NCBI GenBank assembly: GCA_022572185.1
Contig: JACZWL010000017.1
Coordinates: 1-61,066, forward strand
Source of the DNA: Pseudomonadota bacterium
GTDB taxonomy: Bacteria > Pseudomonadota > Gammaproteobacteria > Steroidobacterales > Woeseiaceae
Direction of reading: 5' to 3'
DNA: 61,066 nucleotides
Shown here: in pieces, positions 3,848 to 60,622 of the stretch
Layout of the letters: every line of letters begins with the position of its first letter
Numbering within the stretch: position 1 is the stretch's first letter
The notes under the pieces: generated by a model
Database searches by the model: none
What the model was told of the DNA's origin: nothing
Seen by the model: the letters and a program-made list of their open reading frames with translations, nothing else
Program-made: the position numbers and the translations under genes

Positions 3848-5146
3848 GTGAGCGCAGCATTCATGAAAATTGACTCTCTGATAGGCAAATTCGTTCGTCG
3901 AGTCAATCGGCAGCACATATGCTTTCCGGAGGCGGCTGGCGGCACGCGTCTGCCATCCCCGAATCCCGACCGGCGCTATTTGCTGTACCTGCATGTTCCG
4001 TATTGCGTCGTCCTTTGCCCGTTTTGCTCCTTTCACCGGGTCAAATTCAATAAGGACCGTGCGCAGCAGTATTTTCGAGCCCTGCGCCGCGAAATAGAGC
4101 TGGTCACGGATGCCGGTTACAAATTCGATGAGCTTTACGTGGGTGGCGGAACACCAACCGTGTTGCCGGATGAACTGCTCAGGACCATCGGTCTTTTGCG
4201 TGAGCTGCATTCGATAAGAGGCATCTCTGTCGAAACCAATCCGGACGACCTCGATAACGGTCGGCTGCCGGAATTGCGGGAAGCCGGTGTCAAGCGCCTG
4301 TCCGTTGGCGTGCAAAGCTTTGACGATGAGCTCCTGCGCGAAATGCAGCGCTTCGAGAAATACGGTAGCGGCAGCCAGATTCGCAGCCGCCTGCGACGCG
4401 CCATGGGAATCTTCGATACGCTCAATGTCGACATGATTTTCAATTTTCCGCATCAAACCGAAGCGTCACTTCGAAGGGACCTGGACATACTCGTTGATGA
4501 GGTCGGCGTCGACCAGGTCTCTTTCTACCCTTTGATGTCGGTAAACAGTACGAGAAAGATGATGCTTCGTACTGTCGGCCGGGTGGATGACTCTCGCGAA
4601 CGGAAAATGTACGAAATGATTGCCAGGCGCATGCTCTCGGCCGGATACACGAGATCGTCGGCATGGTGCTTTTCGCGACGGCCCGGCATGCTCGATGAGT
4701 ACATTGTTGAGAGGGACGAGTATCTTGGGTTGGGCAGCGGATCTTTCAGCTATCTGCAAGGGAGCATGTACGCCAGCACGTTTTCAATCAATCACTACTT
4801 GCGGGTGGTGGAGGCCGACAGGACCGGCACAGTTCGCCGTCGCGACATGACGGAGCGGGACCAGATGCGTTATTACTTGTTAGTGCAGCTTTTTGGCGGT
4901 TCGCTGGACCAGGCGGCGGCCGAAGCTCGTTTTGACGGAAGATTTCAACGAACCATGTGGCCCGAACTGGCAGCATTACGCATCATTGGTGCGATGCGGG
5001 ATTCCGGCGGTGTGCTGACGCTAAGCGAGAGCGGCTACTATCTCTGGGTCTTGTTGATGCGCGAATTCTTAACCGGGGTTAACAGCCTTCGTGACCAGAT
5101 GAGACACAACATCGCTCGCGAGACCGCACTCCTGCCGGTTCATTGA
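3848..5146 (+). CDS. HemN/HemW-like radical SAM protein
   Basis: This 432-residue protein belongs to the coproporphyrinogen III oxidase-like radical SAM family. The cluster motif CxxxCxxC is at Cys53, Cys57 and Cys60 ([11 protein letters not shown]), followed by the family signatures [38 protein letters not shown] and [13 protein letters not shown]. Oxygen-independent HemN and the heme chaperone HemW share these motifs, and sequence reading alone does not separate them or related heme-utilisation paralogues. Its place right after frdABCD fits a function in oxygen-poor conditions. GTG 3848 gives the longest form, but ATG 3863 is an equally good start since neither has a clear ribosome binding site. 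Confidence 0.75.
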
Positions 5147-51006: not shown

Positions 51007-51159
51007 GTCCAATAAGGCGTCAGAGTGATTTATCGGCATCGTACCGCATCCTTTGCCGGCCGGTTGCCGGACAGATTGCCGAAAAGTAAATCTGACACCT
51101 TTCTGGACCGGATTGACTCTTGTATTTTAAAGCCATGACAGCTAGTTTCCCCTGCAAGA

Positions 51160-51429
51160 CCTTGACGGGGAGGAGTACGAAGGCTGGCCCGATACCAGCG
51201 AACGGGGGATGGTGAGAGCCCCGGATCGAAGCCTTTGGAAAATCGCCCCTGAGTCGCTGCCCGAAATGCGACGTCGTTGCCAAAGCATCGTTGTCGCGCT
51301 GTAGGATCAGCCGGCTGACCCCCGATATCGGGTATATGAGGCGGGAGCCAAGGTGCTCTCGTGAAACCGGGTGGTACCGCGATTGGATAGATGTCGCCCC
51401 GGACGCAGGATCTGCGTTCGGGGTTTTTT
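51160..51429 (+). promoter_or_regulatory. T-box riboswitch, isoleucine-specific, upstream of ileS
   Basis: The leader has the ordered parts of a T-box. Stem I begins GACGGGG and carries the loop-E motif AGTA (51174-51177). Its apical part is CGGGG-GATGGTGAGAG-CCCCG, and its 3' side is GGAAAATCGCCCC. The specifier codon read there is ATC (51242-51244), an Ile codon. A bulged TGA next to CCCC fits a kink-turn. A second stem GTCGC...GCGAC and a third GGGAGC...GCTCTC follow. The antiterminator core GGGTGGTACCGCG (51369-51381) has TGGT, which pairs with a tRNA ending ACCA as tRNA-Ile does. An intrinsic terminator completes it. Uncharged tRNA-Ile should favour read-through into ileS. Confidence 0.9.
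51397..51429 (+). terminator. conditional terminator of the T-box leader
   Basis: CCCCGGACGCAG-gat-CTGCGTTCGGGG followed by six T residues. It lies directly after the antiterminator sequence and 20 bases before the ileS start, so it controls transcription rather than translation. Confidence 0.9.
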
Positions 51430-51448: not shown

Positions 51449-54400
51449 GTGGGTTTTAAGGAAGTTTCAGGACGCTACAACGGGCCGGCACTCGAAAAAG
51501 AAGTGCTGACGTTCTGGCGTGACAACAAGGTCTTCGAACAGACCCTGAGTCAGTCCGAAGGCCGGCCGCAGTTCAGTTTCAATGAAGGTCCGCCGACGGC
51601 GAACGGCAAGCCGGGTATCCACCATGTGCTGGCACGAAGCTTCAAAGACGCCTTCCCACGATACAAGACCATGCGTGGCTATTACGCGCCGCGTAAGGCA
51701 GGCTGGGATACGCACGGATTACCCGTCGAGCACGAGATCGAAAAAGAGCTCGGCATATTCGACAAGAAAGAGATCGAGGAAAAGGTAGGGATTGCCGAGT
51801 TCACGCGGCGATGCCGCGAGTCCGTCATGCGCTACATCGGCGACTGGGAAAAGATGACCGAGCGCATGGGATTCTGGGTCAAGCTGGATGAAGCTTATTA
51901 CACGCTCGATAACAGATACATAGAGTCGGTCTGGCACCTGCTTAAGGTCATTTGGGACAAGGGCCTGATCTATCGTGGCTATAAAGTCGTGCCGTATGAT
52001 CCGAGAATCGGCGCAACCTTGTCTTCGCACGAACTGGCGCTGGGCTACAAGGAAACGGAGGACCCGTCGGTAACGGTGCGCTTCAAGGTCGAAGGCGAAG
52101 AGAACACATTTTTTCTGGTCTGGACCACCACACCGTGGACATTACCGTCCAATCTTGCGCTCGCCGTACATCCGGACGTGGACTACGTCTATGTCGAGGC
52201 GGAAGGCGAAACACTGATTCTGGCAGAAGACCTGCGAGAAGCAGTTCTTCGCGATCTGCCGCACAAGGTCACGAAAACAGTAAAAGGAACCGAGCTCGTC
52301 GGCATGCGCTATGAGCAGCTGTTCAAGTACCTGTCGGTTGAAGCCGATGCGTTCAAGGTACTGCCAGCCGACTTTGTCACCACAGAAGACGGCACGGGCA
52401 TCGTGCACACGGCGCCGGCATACGGTGTCGATGATCTCGAGTTCGGGCAAAAACATGGATTACCGGTGCTGCACGGCGTGGGCCTGGACGGGCACTTCTT
52501 GCCGGAGGTCACTCCGGTGGCCGGCAAGTTCTTCAAGCACGCCGACCAAGTGCTGATTCGCGAACTCGAAGACCGGGGCATGATGTTTCGTGCCGAGACC
52601 TGCGTGCACAACTACCCGTTCGGCTGGCGGACGGGCGACCCGATCATTTATTACGCCAAGAACGCCTGGTACATCCGTACATCCGATTTCAGCGAACGCA
52701 TGGTCGAGCTCAACAAGACGATCAAGTGGGTACCCGAGCACATCCGCGACGGGCGGTTCGGCAAGTGGCTGGAAGGCAACATCGACTGGGCACTGTCTCG
52801 CGAGCGTTTCTGGGGAACGCCGCTACCCGTGTGGAGTAATGGTCAAGGCGACTACCTATGCATCGGCTCCGTTCGAGAACTCGAGGAACTGACCGGGCGG
52901 GAACTCGGCGATCTTGACTTGCACAGGCCAGCCATCGATGACGTTACGTTCGAGAAGGACGGCAAGACATGGCGACGCGTGCCGGAAGTGATCGACTGCT
53001 GGTTCGATTCAGGTGCGATGTCGTACGCGCAATGGCACTACCCTTTCGAAAACCAGGAAAAATTCGAGAAGCATTTTCCGGCCGATTTTATTTGCGAGGC
53101 CATTGATCAGACCCGCGGGTGGTTCTACACGCTGCATGCGATCGCCACGCTGGTCTCCGACACCGTCGCCTTTCGAAACTGTATCTGCCTGAACCTGATC
53201 GTGGATAAGGAAGGCAAGAAAATGTCGAAGTCGCTCGGCAATATCGTCGATCCCTACGACGTCTTCGACACGGTGGGCGCGGACGCGCTGCGCTGGTATT
53301 TCCTCGCCCGCCTGTCACCGGACGCGCCGAAACGCATCTCGGTGGAAATCGTCGCCGCCGTGGTCAGCTCCTTCATCAATACATTCTGGAACACTTACAG
53401 CTTCTTTATTCTGTACGCGCGGCTGGATGATGTGGATCTGAGCACCGACATACCGGCAGCTCAGCGTCCGGAGATCGACCGCTGGGCGCTGGCGTTGATG
53501 AACCAGACGATCAGGCGCTGTACCGAGGCAATGGACGACTACGACGCAAAGTCCGCCGGTGATGCGATCGAGTCTTTTATCGATCAACTGAGCAACTGGT
53601 ACGTTCGTAGAAACCGGCGCCGCTTCTGGAAATCCACCGATCCCGAGGACAAGCGTTCGGCCTACCTGACCCTTTACCAGTGCCTGAATGCGGCTCATCG
53701 GCTGATGGCGCCTTTCGTGCCGTTCCTGGCCGAGCATGTCTATCAGAACCTCGTCAGAGGAGCAGACGAAAACGCGCCGCTGAGCGTACACATGAGCGAC
53801 TGGCCCGAAGTAAACGAGGCTTACGACAACGATCAGCTGCTGTTCGACATCGGCGTCGTGCAGAAAGTCGTCGGCCTGGCCAGGGCGGCGAGAGGGCAGT
53901 CGGGCGTGCGCACAAGACAGCCGCTGTCACGCCTGCTCATCAGGGCGCCCGACGACGCCTCGGCCAGAGCCCTGGCCGATCACCAGGCGCAGATTCTCGA
54001 GGAGCTGAACGTCAAAGCAATCGAATTCATCGCGCGCGATGCGAGTCACGTGAGTTACCGTATCAAGCCGAATCTGCCGAGAATCGGCAAGCTATACGGC
54101 AAGGATATTCCGTCGATCCGCAAGGCACTCGAGGAGAGCGATGGCGCCGAGATTGCCGCTGCGGTTGCGAAAGGTGAGTCATACACGATAGTCGTACCTA
54201 CCGGCGAGATCACGCTGGAAGCCGACGACCTGCTGGTCGAGACGAGCTCTGCCGAGGGCTATGCCTGCGCTGAAGACGCAGGATTCCTGACGGAACTCGA
54301 TACGACCCTGAACGATGCCCTCATAGCCGAGGGCACAGCCCGCGAGCTGATTCGGACAGTACAGGACGCCCGTAAGCAGGCCGGCCTGGAGGTCTCCGAC

Positions 54401-54583
54401 AGGATCGTTCTGGGCGTCTCGGGAACCGGGGGCGTGGAGTCGTCCCTTGAAGCGTATCGCGACTATCTGATGTCAGAAACCCTGGCAACAAAGTGGCAAA
54501 TTGGGCAGCCGGATTCGCTTTTTACGTGTCACAAGGAACTCGGTGATGAACGCTGGTTTATCGAAATCAGCATGGCAGGCTGA
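51449..54583 (+). CDS. ileS: isoleucyl-tRNA synthetase, type 2 (IleRS2) with GXHH motif
   Basis: This 1044-residue class I synthetase is of the eukaryote-like IleRS2 type. The nucleotide-binding HIGH motif appears as GIHH (residues 56-59, in PPTANGKPGIHHVLARSF). The second motif is KMSKS (591-595). The CP1 editing domain has VWTTTPWTLPSN and TTEDGTGIVHTAPAYG. The C-terminal half has SNWYVRRNRRRFWK, the anticodon-binding region, and the long IleRS2 tail. GTG 51449 starts MGFKEVSGRYNGPALEKEVLTFW, as the family does, with AGGA upstream. IleRS2 enzymes resist mupirocin, and GXHH forms extremely so. Control is by the T-box leader. Confidence 0.95.
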   Translation: MGFKEVSGRYNGPALEKEVLTFWRDNKVFEQTLSQSEGRPQFSFNEGPPTANGKPGIHHVLARSFKDAFPRYKTMRGYYAPRKAGWDTHGLPVEHEIEKELGIFDKKEIEEKVGIAEFTRRCRESVMRYIGDWEKMTERMGFWVKLDEAYYTLDNRYIESVWHLLKVIWDKGLIYRGYKVVPYDPRIGATLSSHELALGYKETEDPSVTVRFKVEGEENTFFLVWTTTPWTLPSNLALAVHPDVDYVYVEAEGETLILAEDLREAVLRDLPHKVTKTVKGTELVGMRYEQLFKYLSVEADAFKVLPADFVTTEDGTGIVHTAPAYGVDDLEFGQKHGLPVLHGVGLDGHFLPEVTPVAGKFFKHADQVLIRELEDRGMMFRAETCVHNYPFGWRTGDPIIYYAKNAWYIRTSDFSERMVELNKTIKWVPEHIRDGRFGKWLEGNIDWALSRERFWGTPLPVWSNGQGDYLCIGSVRELEELTGRELGDLDLHRPAIDDVTFEKDGKTWRRVPEVIDCWFDSGAMSYAQWHYPFENQEKFEKHFPADFICEAIDQTRGWFYTLHAIATLVSDTVAFRNCICLNLIVDKEGKKMSKSLGNIVDPYDVFDTVGADALRWYFLARLSPDAPKRISVEIVAAVVSSFINTFWNTYSFFILYARLDDVDLSTDIPAAQRPEIDRWALALMNQTIRRCTEAMDDYDAKSAGDAIESFIDQLSNWYVRRNRRRFWKSTDPEDKRSAYLTLYQCLNAAHRLMAPFVPFLAEHVYQNLVRGADENAPLSVHMSDWPEVNEAYDNDQLLFDIGVVQKVVGLARAARGQSGVRTRQPLSRLLIRAPDDASARALADHQAQILEELNVKAIEFIARDASHVSYRIKPNLPRIGKLYGKDIPSIRKALEESDGAEIAAAVAKGESYTIVVPTGEITLEADDLLVETSSAEGYACAEDAGFLTELDTTLNDALIAEGTARELIRTVQDARKQAGLEVSDRIVLGVSGTGGVESSLEAYRDYLMSETLATKWQIGQPDSLFTCHKELGDERWFIEISMAG

Positions 54584-56330: not shown

Positions 56331-56600
56331 CCTACGATCCGGTTTTCCTGTCGGTTTCCGAGAAGTGTGGCACCGCGTTACTGCCAACGCTAGCCCCAAA
56401 GGGTAGCCGTGGAGCGCGGGGCACACAATCCGGCGGAGATTGATGATGTCTGTTTTTGGCGAAAGCAGACTATTGGGTGTCCTGTTCCGGCTGATCTTGT
56501 TCACCGGCAAACTGTGAACCCGGTCACAGTTCCGAATTCTTATGGGGAATTACGTTAAGCCGTGGCGCCACCCTTCCGTCCATTTGGTAACCTAATCCGC

Positions 56601-56681
56601 GCTGACAAGGGCAAACCTGTCGAAAGACAGGGACGCAAAGCCACCGGTCTAAGGGCGCAAGCCTAGGACAGCGGGGCTGCC
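56601..56681 (+). promoter_or_regulatory. GEMM-I riboswitch (cyclic di-GMP-I class)
   Basis: The sequence carries the class consensus in order: GGGCAAACC, a P2 stem CTGTC-GAAA-GACAG with GNRA loop, GGGACGCAAAGCC, CCGGTCTAAGG (tetraloop receptor), then AGGACAGCGGGGCTGCC. It is very close to the Vibrio Vc2 aptamer. The gene for a secreted protein starts 122 bases downstream. A hairpin GAACATA-tctg-TATGTTC follows, but no T-run, so control may be translational. A cGAMP-sensing variant of the same fold cannot be excluded by eye. Confidence 0.92.
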
Positions 56682-56803
56682 AAAACCAACGCTGAACATA
56701 TCTGTATGTTCGGCAGATCCGGTGTGATCGCCGGTCGAGAGTTCTGGTCGTATTGCCCGACATTAGCGAAGGGCTTTCCCAGGAATCTCGACGGAGCGAC
56801 CTT

Positions 56804-57499
56804 ATGACCGGCCGATCTCGACTCAAGCTCTTATGCCTCCTCGCTGTGCTGGTGTGTGTTGTCAACTTCGCCATTAGCCCGGAGGTATCGGCAAAACCTA
56901 AAAAAGACGTGGGTTCCGGGAGCGGCAAAGCTTTGGGGAAGCTCAAAAAGAACAGGGAAAACTCTCCGCCGTCTCTCTCCGGGACACCCGATGGGGTGGT
57001 GCTCGAGAATTCGTTCTACGAATTCGTGCCCAGCGCTTCGGATCCGGACGGCGATACCTTGACCTTTGCGATCAATAACAGGCCCGGCTGGGCCGACTTT
57101 GATCCCACCACAGGTGCGCTCTTTGGCACGCCAAGTGCGGCGGACGTGGGCCGCTACAGCGCCATACAGATCGCGGTAAGCGACGGTCTGGCTACTGCCG
57201 AGTTGTCGTCTTTCGACATCGATGTGACGTCGACAACTCTGGCCTCAGTGACGCTCCAATGGCAGCCTCCCACGGAAAATACCGATGGCACCCCGCTTAC
57301 CGACCTTGCGGGCTATCGCATCTACTACGGCGTCGACCCGGCCGATTTGAGCGGTCTCATCGAGTTGTCGAATCCGGGTCTGACAAGCTACGTCGTCGAA
57401 GCGCTGACCCCCAACACCTGGTACTTCGCCATGACGTCTGTGAACGACCGGGGCCAGGAAAGCGACTTCTCTAACCAGCTGATTGGCGACACCCGCTAA
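56804..57499 (+). CDS. secreted protein with putative Ig and fibronectin type III domains, under riboswitch control
   Basis: This 231-residue protein has an N-terminal signal (LLCLLAVLVCVVNFAISPEVSAK), a basic linker, then an Ig-like (He_PIG/cadherin-like) domain: NSPPSLSGTPDGVVLENSFYEFVPSASDPDGDTLTFAINNRPGWADFDPTTGALFGTPSAADVG. A fibronectin type III domain ends the protein (ASVTLQWQPPTENTDGTPLTDLAGYRIYYG...VVEALTPNTWYFAMTSVNDRGQES). Such domains occur in extracellular matrix and adhesion proteins. ATG 56804 has GGAG eight bases upstream. The c-di-GMP-type riboswitch before it fits a biofilm or surface role. Confidence 0.82.
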   Translation: MTGRSRLKLLCLLAVLVCVVNFAISPEVSAKPKKDVGSGSGKALGKLKKNRENSPPSLSGTPDGVVLENSFYEFVPSASDPDGDTLTFAINNRPGWADFDPTTGALFGTPSAADVGRYSAIQIAVSDGLATAELSSFDIDVTSTTLASVTLQWQPPTENTDGTPLTDLAGYRIYYGVDPADLSGLIELSNPGLTSYVVEALTPNTWYFAMTSVNDRGQESDFSNQLIGDTR

Positions 57500-59076: not shown

Positions 59077-59517
59077 ATGAACATATTGTTCTTGTGCACT
59101 GGCAACTCCTGTCGCTCACAAATGGCGGAGGGCTGGGCCGGTCAACTCGGTGGAAAATGGGTCGAGGCACAATCCGCCGGTATTGAATCTCACAGGAAAA
59201 ACACCCGCGCTATCGATGTGATGCGAGAAGCAGGTGTGGACATTTCCCGGCAGGAGTCCACCAAACTGACTGATGAGATGCTGACCTCGGCCGATTGCGT
59301 GGTTACCCTTTGTGGCCATGCGGACGAAAACTGTCCGGTTTTACCGGAAGGAACACGGAAAGAGCATTGGCCGCTCGATGACCCAGGCAAAGCGATGGGC
59401 TCAGAGGACGAAATAATGGCGGTATTCAGAGCAAGCTGCGCTGACATCCGCCGACGGGTGGAGGACTTGATCAAACGGATAGAAAAAGAGAACGGGACGG
59501 AAAACAATGAGTGCTAA
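59077..59517 (+). CDS. arsC: thioredoxin-coupled arsenate reductase ArsC
   Basis: This 146-residue protein of the low-molecular-weight phosphatase fold has the loop LFLCTGNSCRSQMAEGW (P-loop CTGNSCRS). A second pair of cysteines lies in VTLCGHADENCPVLP, as in Staphylococcus-type ArsC, which passes a disulfide to thioredoxin. EHWPLDDPGKA provides the catalytic Asp. It reduces arsenate to arsenite for export by Acr3. Confidence 0.93.
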   Translation: MNILFLCTGNSCRSQMAEGWAGQLGGKWVEAQSAGIESHRKNTRAIDVMREAGVDISRQESTKLTDEMLTSADCVVTLCGHADENCPVLPEGTRKEHWPLDDPGKAMGSEDEIMAVFRASCADIRRRVEDLIKRIEKENGTENNEC

Positions 59518-60622
59518 CAGTAAGGGCAGCGGTGAAATGAGTATTTTTGAACGCTATCTCACCATATGGGTTGCAATTTGCATTGTCGTTGGCATCGGGC
59601 TTGGACAGCTGTTCCCGAACGTATTTCAGTTCGTGGGCCACATCGAGGTGACGCACATCAACCTGCCAGTTGCCGTGCTTGTCTGGCTGATGATCATTCC
59701 GATGCTAATCAAAATCGATCTGAAGCAACTTACAAGAGTCAGGCAACACTGGCGAGGGGTTGGAGTCACCTTATTCGTAAACTGGGGCGTCAAGCCGTTT
59801 TCAATGGCGCTGCTCGGCTGGTTGTTCATCGGCTATCTTTTTCGTGACTACCTTCCTGCCGAACAAATCGATTCTTACATCGCCGGGCTGGTGATACTGG
59901 CCGCAGCGCCGTGCACTGCAATGGTATTCGTTTGGAGTCACCTGATGCGGGGCGAGCCCCACTTCACACTGTCGCAGGTTGCCTTAAACGACGTCATCAT
60001 GGTGTTTGCTTTTGCGCCTATCGTTGCATTGCTGCTGGGATTGTCCGCGATCACCGTACCCTGGGATACGCTGATTCTGTCAGTAGTTCTCTACATCGTT
60101 ATACCTCTAATCATCGCAAGTCTGTGGCGCAGGAATCTATTGAATCGCGATAATGGTCAGGCGAAATTAAATCAGCTTATAGCTCGCCTCGGTCCGATGT
60201 CTCTTGGCGCATTGTTAGCCACACTGATATTGCTCTTCGGTTTTCAGGGAAAACAGATAATTGCCGAGCCATTAATTATTGTGTTGCTGGCAGTGCCGAT
60301 CCTGATTCAGGTCTTTTTCAATTCAGGATTGGCTTATTTGCTTAATCGTCAGGTGCGTTCCCCGCACTGCGTTGCAGGACCGTCCGCACTGATTGGTGCA
60401 AGTAACTTCTTTGAACTAGCCGTGGCCACAGCTATTGCATTATTTGGATTCGAATCCGGTGCCGCATTAGCCACTGTAGTAGGCGTGTTGATCGAAGTAC
60501 CAGCAATGCTGGTGGCTGTGCGAATAGTCAACCAGTCTCGAGCTTGGTATGAGTGTCGCGCCGGTATCGTTCCGTACAGTGAATGTTGCCCTGAGGCTGT
60601 GCCTCTGAATACGCGCCCTTAG
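59507..60622 (+). CDS. acr3: arsenite efflux permease Acr3
   Basis: This 371-residue permease of about ten helices exports arsenite. Family motifs are present: FERYLTIWVAICIVVGIGLGQLFP, LAAAPCTAMVFVWSHL (conserved cysteine) and HCVAGPSALIGASNFFELAVATAIALFG. The start overlaps the arsC stop. The last 20 residues (ECRAGIVPYSECCPEAVPLNTRP) are more polar and contain extra cysteines that may be accessory. Confidence 0.93.
   Translation: MSANSKGSGEMSIFERYLTIWVAICIVVGIGLGQLFPNVFQFVGHIEVTHINLPVAVLVWLMIIPMLIKIDLKQLTRVRQHWRGVGVTLFVNWGVKPFSMALLGWLFIGYLFRDYLPAEQIDSYIAGLVILAAAPCTAMVFVWSHLMRGEPHFTLSQVALNDVIMVFAFAPIVALLLGLSAITVPWDTLILSVVLYIVIPLIIASLWRRNLLNRDNGQAKLNQLIARLGPMSLGALLATLILLFGFQGKQIIAEPLIIVLLAVPILIQVFFNSGLAYLLNRQVRSPHCVAGPSALIGASNFFELAVATAIALFGFESGAALATVVGVLIEVPAMLVAVRIVNQSRAWYECRAGIVPYSECCPEAVPLNTRP

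What the first reader, a model, noticed from the sequence alone, without database searches (positions are those of the whole stretch)
51160..51429. T-box riboswitch controlling ileS in a gammaproteobacterium-like genome
The leader shows a full transcription-terminating T-box: AGTA loop-E motif, AUC specifier, probable kink-turn, GGGUGGUACCGCG core with UGGU matching tRNA-Ile, and a terminator. T-boxes are known mainly from Firmicutes and Actinobacteria, with few in other groups. The surrounding gene orders (trxA-rho, dusB-fis, aroQ-accB-accC) are gammaproteobacterial. Leader and gene may have moved together from a Gram-positive or deltaproteobacterial donor, or the lineage may keep an undescribed T-box regulon.
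Basis: partly seen in the sequence, partly recalled or inferred. Interest (0 to 1): 0.88.

Follow-up and report, generated by a model that had tools for sequence, protein, structure and literature searches.

The report
T-box switch before a gammaproteobacterial ileS
A gammaproteobacterial family (Woeseiaceae) carries, just before an isoleucyl-tRNA synthetase gene, an RNA switch of a kind known mainly from Gram-positive bacteria, and switch and gene appear to have arrived together as one unit.

Summary
The finding is real. Window 51153-51404 matches Rfam T-box RF00230 at 87.6 bits, E 8.1e-20, just under the gathering score of 93. It is the only match in the 3.14 Mb genome. AGTA, AG bulge, AUC specifier, UGGU bulge, antiterminator and a terminator with U-run are present. 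Stem I covaries strongly across 88 leaders; 104 of 104 leaders have AUC.

It is no stray contig: 85 of 101 genomes of the same family have exactly one T-box; contig lengths identify the family as Woeseiaceae. 53 sampled genomes from 15 other families of the order gave no match. A second order, gammaproteobacterial by record titles, has it in 43 of 109 genomes, only where the same IleS type occurs (43 of 59 with it, 0 of 50 without).

The IleS is type 2 with GIHH, a signature linked to mupirocin hyper-resistance (PMC10485003, passages), and the only full IleS found in this genome. Most likely: an ordinary transcription-terminating T-box sensing uncharged tRNA-Ile, acquired together with its ileS2. 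The ultimate donor is unknown. New member of a known kind, in an unexpected lineage.

The parts
51158..51255 (+). T-box Stem I (base helix, kink-turn-like region, specifier loop, distal arm)
   Evidence: RF00230 alignment; 17 of 20 pairs with double changes in 88 leaders
51174..51177 (+). AGTA (loop E / S-turn) motif of Stem I
   Evidence: AGTA in 66 of 88 leaders, AACA in 16 of 88
51197..51201 (+). AG bulge (AGCGA) of the distal arm
   Evidence: AGCGA 76 of 88, AGAGA 11 of 88
51211..51218 (+). distal loop GGTGAGAG
   Evidence: alignment; its third and fourth bases (T, G) invariant in 88 leaders
51242..51244 (+). specifier codon AUC (isoleucine; would pair with anticodon GAU)
   Evidence: ATC at the aligned column in 104 of 104 distinct leaders, alignment not anchored on it
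51369..51381 (+). T-box core GGGTGGTACCGCG; TGGT at 51372-51375 would pair with an ACCA 3' end of uncharged tRNA-Ile
   Evidence: RF00230 alignment; GGGTGGTACCG invariant in 50 leaders
51367..51402 (+). antiterminator helix around the tRNA-binding bulge
   Evidence: 100% of 450 cells paired in 50 leaders, but hardly any variation
51396..51424 (+). intrinsic terminator hairpin; shares 51396-51402 with the antiterminator
   Evidence: covariation in 50 leaders; shared strand and energies
51424..51429 (+). U-run of the terminator
   Evidence: sequence
51449..54583 (+). ileS, type 2 isoleucyl-tRNA synthetase (1044 aa, GTG start, GIHH signature), the only full IleS found in the genome

Best explanation
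A canonical class I (transcription-terminating) T-box riboswitch in the leader of ileS. When tRNA-Ile is charged, the nascent leader forms the terminator at 51396-51424 and transcription stops before ileS. When Ile-tRNA synthesis fails (isoleucine shortage or IleRS inhibition), uncharged tRNA-Ile pairs its GAU anticodon with the AUC specifier in Stem I and its ACCA end with the UGGU bulge, stabilising the antiterminator that uses the 5' arm of the terminator, and ileS is transcribed. Element and target gene form a cassette that the Woeseiaceae ancestor acquired laterally and that stands in place of the ileS1 used by most of its order. Shown here: the RNA family match, conserved structure, specifier, mutually exclusive hairpins, family-wide distribution and exclusive pairing with one IleS2 clade in the genomes examined. 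Inferred: tRNA binding, termination in the cell, and the lateral transfer and its direction.
For: RF00230 87.6 bits, E 8.1e-20. One match in the genome, one full IleS. 85 of 101 family genomes positive, 43 of 45 among good-quality ones, 12 of 12 genera. ileS follows directly in 23 of 23 fetched family loci L007-L029, and in the 4.06 Mb single-contig genome G006. Stem I: 91.9% of cells paired against 79.1 shuffled and at most 54.3 when slid; 259 double-change cells against 85. Terminator: 97.6% paired, 44 double-change cells against 14. AUC in 104 of 104 leaders. The 43 T-box genomes of the second order all lie among the 59 with this IleS type, none among the 50 without (lists compared by eye). 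IleS tree: these IleS2 are one clade (95 rows, support 100), Woeseiaceae a clade within it (61 rows, 99). In the rest of the order sample, 49 of 53 genomes have IleS at about 27-34% identity, and 11 of 11 of those read have HIGH or HMGH.
Against: The score is below Rfam's gathering threshold. The single-sequence fold energy is unremarkable and no sigma-70-like promoter was found by consensus. The antiterminator hardly varies, so it has no covariation support of its own (1 double-change cell; 30 of 500 shuffles reach every value). By my pattern 15 of 67 Woeseiaceae leaders and 18 of 37 leaders from outside the family lack a clear U-run, so termination is not the obvious mode everywhere. Several relatives have lost, truncated or rebuilt the T-box (L061, L066, L071, L073, L084, L100, L102; judged by pattern and eye), so it is dispensable. 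The genome's tRNA-Ile was not found with a short pattern. The class-wide survey used strict filters and showed nothing of the second order, so absence elsewhere is only a lower bound. The order is not uniform: family f8 has a distant IleS2-like enzyme (37-43% identity, 2 genomes) and 2 genomes gave no match.
Confidence: 0.87

Rival explanations
1. The T-box is real but vertically inherited from an early gammaproteobacterial ancestor and lost in most lineages.
For: It occurs in two orders and has been lost several times within Woeseiaceae.
Against: None of 53 genomes from 15 other families of the same order gave a match, and 49 of these 53 carry IleS at about 30% identity; the T-box-linked IleS2 are a single clade. 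Vertical descent would need loss of both element and gene type in nearly every lineage.
Confidence: 0.08
2. The leader acts mainly on translation or through Rho rather than by intrinsic termination, at least in part of the clade.
For: 18 of 37 leaders from outside the family and 15 of 67 Woeseiaceae leaders lack a U-run by pattern, and in several a GGAG ribosome-binding-site-like stretch follows the hairpin closely (by eye).
Against: The window's own leader has a 13-pair hairpin and six Ts, and 52 of 67 Woeseiaceae leaders have a U-run by pattern.
Confidence: 0.1
3. A decaying relic with no regulatory role.
For: Losses and truncations in relatives.
Against: Compensatory changes across 88 leaders, invariant specifier and nearly invariant core; the window copy is complete.
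Confidence: 0.05
4. Assembly chimera or contamination from a Gram-positive organism.
For: None found.
Against: 85 of 101 family genomes have it, including a 4.06 Mb single-contig genome and a 3.6 Mb contig titled Woeseia sp. (L080).
Confidence: 0.01

Closest known systems
T-box leader RF00230, class I transcriptional T-box before ileS of Firmicutes (for example Staphylococcus aureus ileS, cited in PMC2494555)
   Same: Stem I with AGTA, AG bulge and specifier, core UGGUACCGCG, antiterminator competing with a terminator, ileS target, Ile specifier
   Different: Host lineage: the published surveys that I could read (passages) list Firmicutes, Actinobacteria, Chloroflexi and Deinococcus-Thermus and, in Proteobacteria, only Geobacter/Pelobacter (PMC2494555; PMC3766115). 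One target gene only.
ileS T-boxes of Deinococcus and Chloroflexi (PMC2494555 passages)
   Same: An ileS T-box outside Firmicutes; 1ile (T. thermophilus IleRS by recall) is the best solved-structure match to this IleS
   Different: No sequence of those leaders was compared here; kinship is untested.
Actinobacterial class II (translational) T-boxes
   Same: Target ileS in some Actinobacteria (PMC2494555 passages)
   Different: Those are translational and often have a truncated Stem I (PMC7778990 passages, and recall); this one has a full Stem I and a terminator.
GXHH-type IleRS2 (PMC10485003, passages)
   Same: GIHH in place of HXGH; type 2 sequence; 8c8u-8c9d (P. megaterium IleRS2 by recall) are among the best solved matches
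   Different: Resistance of this enzyme untested; here it is the only full IleS found in a gammaproteobacterial genome, behind a T-box.

Membership tests
T-box (RF00230) | Covariance-model match over the whole family model | tested here: met
   87.6 bits, positions 1-219, E 8.1e-20, though below the gathering score of 93; 16 of 101 family genomes exceed the cut-off
T-box (RF00230) | Stem I with loop E (AGTA), AG bulge and distal loop | tested here: met
T-box (RF00230) | Specifier codon matching the amino acid of the downstream gene | tested here: met
   AUC in 104 of 104 leaders before ileS
T-box (RF00230) | UGGN bulge in an antiterminator that excludes a terminator | tested here: met
T-box (RF00230) | Cognate tRNA whose 3' NCCA end complements the bulge | tested here: inconclusive
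   UGGU fits A73-CCA, usual for tRNA-Ile (recalled); the tRNA gene was not found in this draft genome with a short pattern
T-box (RF00230) | Read-through raised by uncharged, not charged, tRNA | not testable with these tools
   needs in vitro transcription
T-box (RF00230) | Kink-turn at the base of Stem I | not tested
   the sequence only resembles the consensus (alignment)
IleRS2 with GXHH signature | Type 2 IleRS sequence and G-X-H-H signature | tested here: met
   GIHH in the window protein and in 80 of 82 distinct rows from L031-L035 and L060-L139, 2 not readable by the pattern; best solved matches
IleRS2 with GXHH signature | Mupirocin hyper-resistance | not testable with these tools
   needs enzyme kinetics

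The most novel reading that the evidence does not exclude
T-box plus GXHH ileS2 is a mobile, self-inducing antibiotic-target-replacement cassette: marine gammaproteobacteria took it up under pressure from natural IleRS inhibitors of the mupirocin/thiomarinol type, lost their own ileS1, and have since been rebuilding the switch, with palindromic repeats becoming terminators and, in L100, a Stem I joined directly to a repeat-made terminator so that a tRNA-stabilised Stem I would itself be the antiterminator.
Probability: 0.25. Interest if true: 0.78.

Novelty: new member of a known kind. Interest (0 to 1): 0.6.

Why it matters
T-boxes are textbook Gram-positive regulators. A family-wide T-box in a gammaproteobacterial group, found only with one type of IleS in the genomes examined, is a clean case of a regulatory RNA moving together with its target gene. 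It gives a natural series (intact, U-run lost, repeat-interrupted, truncated, absent) for studying how a riboswitch adapts to or decays in a new host, and it makes a concrete prediction: inhibition of IleRS should induce its own, probably mupirocin-tolerant, target.

Tried and rejected
Default Rfam scan: no T-box at gathering score; only the E-value mode showed it. Single-sequence folding gave no significance. The promoter scan found nothing. Search for a wider regulon: none. Search for a donor: the phylum sample and plasmids gave nothing above 49% and 45% identity outside the clade; the named-genome scan kept only the best 80 of 163 relatives, all with proteobacterial titles, so other phyla were hardly reached. 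The tRNA-Ile pattern found two matches with two mismatches each, while the reversed control pattern gave one.

In the first leader extraction my core pattern missed L091, L092 and L098, which do have a T-box (GGGTGGTACCGTG); searches use a wider pattern. The expression required ATC, so its specifier count is circular; one search repeats the count without that anchor. From the 95 leaders, alignment A2 leaves out 7 that looked like near-copies (L008, L014, L107, L125, L132, L134, L180; likeness not measured). Alignment A3 uses 50 of the 95: I left out by hand the leaders from outside Woeseiaceae, those with repeat-filled terminators (L022, L077, L094, L096, L101, L122), L010, L011 and L014 (no U-run) and L008, L107 and L119. 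The terminator covariation therefore describes regular Woeseiaceae terminators only. The grouping into Woeseiaceae and the rest was typed by hand; the tree is a quick IQ-TREE run. For L111, L112, L115, L117 and L139, which group outside Woeseiaceae in that tree, I did not establish the order. Losses of the T-box were judged by pattern and eye; RF00230 was not run on those loci.

Full report
What is there. The stretch 51153-51404 matches the Rfam T-box family from first to last model position at 87.6 bits, E 8.1e-20. It lies under the curated gathering score of 93, which is why the default scan of the window returns only a c-di-GMP-I riboswitch at 56600. In the whole genome (3,142,915 bases, 99 contigs, 96% complete) it is the only match up to E 10. 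The parts are those of a class I T-box: Stem I 51158-51255 with AGTA, AGCGA and GGTGAGAG elements, the specifier ATC at 51242-51244, the core GGGTGGTACCGCG at 51369-51381, and a 13-pair terminator at 51396-51424 followed by Ts. Antiterminator and terminator share 51396-51402, with calculated energies of -10.5 and -24.5 kcal/mol. The terminator is thus the default state unless something stabilises the alternative. ileS begins at a GTG at 51449. The consensus scan found no sigma-70-like promoter upstream.

Is it more than chance? The bare fold of the leader is not (z -1.33, 19 of 200 shuffles as good). The comparative evidence is. In 88 distinct leaders, 20 Stem I pairs form standard pairs in 91.9% of cells (79.1% when partners are shuffled, at most 54.3% when slid), and 259 cells carry changes on both sides (85 shuffled); 17 of 20 pairs have such changes (13.4 shuffled). 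The terminator helix in 50 Woeseiaceae leaders pairs in 97.6% of cells with 44 double-change cells (14 shuffled). The antiterminator is pairable in all 450 cells but nearly invariant (1 double-change cell, 30 of 500 shuffles as high), so it gives no covariation evidence. In an alignment not anchored on the specifier, 104 of 104 distinct leaders carry ATC.

Whose is it? 85 of 101 genomes of the window's family have a match at E 0.001 or better, one each; 43 of 45 among good-quality genomes, 12 of 12 genera; 16 genomes gave none and one match (G067) is partial. In 23 of 23 fetched T-box loci of the family ileS follows at once, and also in G006, a single contig of 4,059,891 bases. Contamination and chimerism are thereby excluded. 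In the order at large 6 of 59 genomes were positive, all six in this family; the other 53, from 15 families, gave no match. In a sample of 369 genomes of the class only two were positive, both of this family. That survey used strict filters, and neither it nor the protein search of an equal sample showed anything of the second group described next, so it says little about rare carriers.

A second group. The named-genome scan with the family's IleS alignment gave 80 relatives (best of 163), the lower part at 66-70% identity in MAGs titled Gammaproteobacteria, Acidiferrobacteraceae, Arenicellales, Thioglobus and others. Of the genomes behind 23 of these loci 19 have one T-box; two of them (L113, L138) are themselves Woeseiaceae, since their T-box coordinates equal those of G030 and G007. 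In the order of one of them (G530, the record of L127) 43 of 109 genomes have one T-box, and 59 of 109 have an IleS of this type at E 1e-150 or better. All 43 T-box genomes are among those 59; none of the other 50 has a match. In 40 of the 41 loci L140-L180 the IleS gene lies in the fetched stretch (L144 has none). The titles of these MAGs disagree, and I do not name the order.

The enzyme. The genome holds one full IleS; the other TIGR00392 matches are partial and below the cut-off. It carries GIHH where IleS1 has HIGH. GIHH was read in 80 of 82 distinct rows from L031-L035 and L060-L139 (2 not readable by the pattern) and in 12 of 12 rows from L201-L230, while 11 of 11 IleS1 rows of the window's order have HIGH or HMGH. 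Passages of PMC10485003 describe this swap as a feature of some IleRS2 that confers mupirocin hyper-resistance. The nearest solved structures are 1ile and 8c8u-8c9d, by recall T. thermophilus IleRS and P. megaterium IleRS2. More distant IleS2 (36-48% identity) occur in 14 other genomes of the 369 of the class; GXHH was read in 11 of these 14. None of the 369 genomes outside the family had a T-box match. In the 20 loci L181-L200 the core pattern occurs in four (L184, L187, L188, L196) and in none at the place of an ileS leader: in L187 it lies inside the gene, and L195 has only a short upstream stretch.

History. In the IleS tree (quick method, 127 rows, midpoint root) the T-box-linked IleS2 form one clade (95 rows, support 100, including the relatives without a T-box). 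Two second-order rows branch first; the other rows from outside the family form a clade (32 rows, 96), and Woeseiaceae form a clade (61 rows, 99). In the order sample, 49 of the 53 genomes outside the family have IleS at about 27-34% identity, two (family f8) a distant IleS2-like enzyme at 37-43%, and two no match. The simplest account is that leader and gene entered the Woeseiaceae ancestor together, perhaps from the second order. The direction rests on one fork with support 95, and no outgroup from another phylum was available. One relative without a T-box, L139, has ileS2 between ribF and lspA, the usual place of ileS in Gammaproteobacteria (recalled), which would fit gene replacement in place; in L137 and L126 ileS2 is followed by metK.

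Variation in the switch. By pattern, 52 of 67 Woeseiaceae leaders and 19 of 37 leaders from outside the family have a U-run after the hairpin. In L022, L077, L094, L096, L101 and L122 the terminator hairpin contains a palindromic repeat; in L100 the T-box domain is gone and such a repeat pairs on from the 3' strand of Stem I into a hairpin with a U-run. L071, L073, L084 and L102 have no recognisable T-box; L061 and L066 look truncated (by pattern and eye). In L159 an ORF that resembles a glutathione S-transferase (my reading, not searched) lies between T-box and ileS.

Against the literature. Passages of PMC2494555 (2008) list T-boxes in 2 of 125 proteobacterial genomes, both before leuA in Geobacter and Pelobacter, and ileS T-boxes in Deinococcus, Chloroflexi and Actinobacteria. 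PMC3766115 (2013, passages) limits T-boxes to Firmicutes, Actinobacteria, Chloroflexi and Thermus/Deinococcus, plus Geobacter. Searches for T-box with Gammaproteobacteria and ileS (one paper, listing only), T-box with Woeseiaceae (none), T-box with Gammaproteobacteria, Deinococcus, riboswitch and aminoacyl-tRNA synthetase (one paper), T-box with Proteobacteria, horizontal, leader and synthetase (five papers) and T-box riboswitch with Gammaproteobacteria (six papers, listing only) showed no report of this. The library is open-access only; TBDB's entries (23,535 sequences; PMC7778990 passages) and Rfam's member list could not be consulted and may already contain some of these sequences.

Why the pairing makes sense (inference). 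Thiomarinol, a mupirocin-like IleRS inhibitor, is made by marine Pseudoalteromonas, and a plasmid-borne ileS of strain SANK 73390 gives resistance to it (PMC3069032 passages); the IleS on a plasmid record of that strain is 39.5% identical to the window's. Any IleRS inhibitor should raise uncharged tRNA-Ile, so a T-box before a tolerant IleS would respond to the threat itself. Nothing here tests this.

Verdict. Mechanistically it is an ordinary T-box; its interest lies in the lineage, the exclusive pairing with ileS2, and the natural series of altered switches.

Noticed in passing
window 56600-56684 (+): c-di-GMP-I riboswitch aptamer, 89.7 bits, about 70 bases before an ORF (56753-57499) with Ig-like and fibronectin type III domains.
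   Followed up: no
L022, L077, L094, L096, L101, L122 (ileS leaders): The ileS terminator hairpin contains a palindromic repeat; six exact forms searched occur 13 times in all in 920 kb of loci L060-L139 and not in the window.
   Followed up: partly
L100 about 4800-5000: Stem I with specifier is kept, but the T-box domain is replaced by a palindromic repeat that continues the 3' strand of Stem I into a terminator-like hairpin: a possible Stem-I-only attenuator.
   Followed up: partly
L120, L123-L126, L130, L132, L134, L173, L178-L180: These leaders from outside Woeseiaceae seem to have an extra hairpin inside the antiterminator, no U-run by eye, and (in those printed in full) a GCGCGA-like stretch before the start codon: perhaps control of translation.
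   Followed up: no
L159 (G580): A 214-aa ORF that reads like a glutathione S-transferase lies between the T-box and ileS, so the T-box may control a two-gene operon there.
   Followed up: no
L139: A T-box-clade ileS2 without T-box sits between ribF and lspA; the record is titled Rhodospirillales but its IleS groups with those of records titled Gammaproteobacteria.
   Followed up: partly
window 59507-60622 (+): ACR3-family arsenite efflux transporter gene.
   Followed up: no
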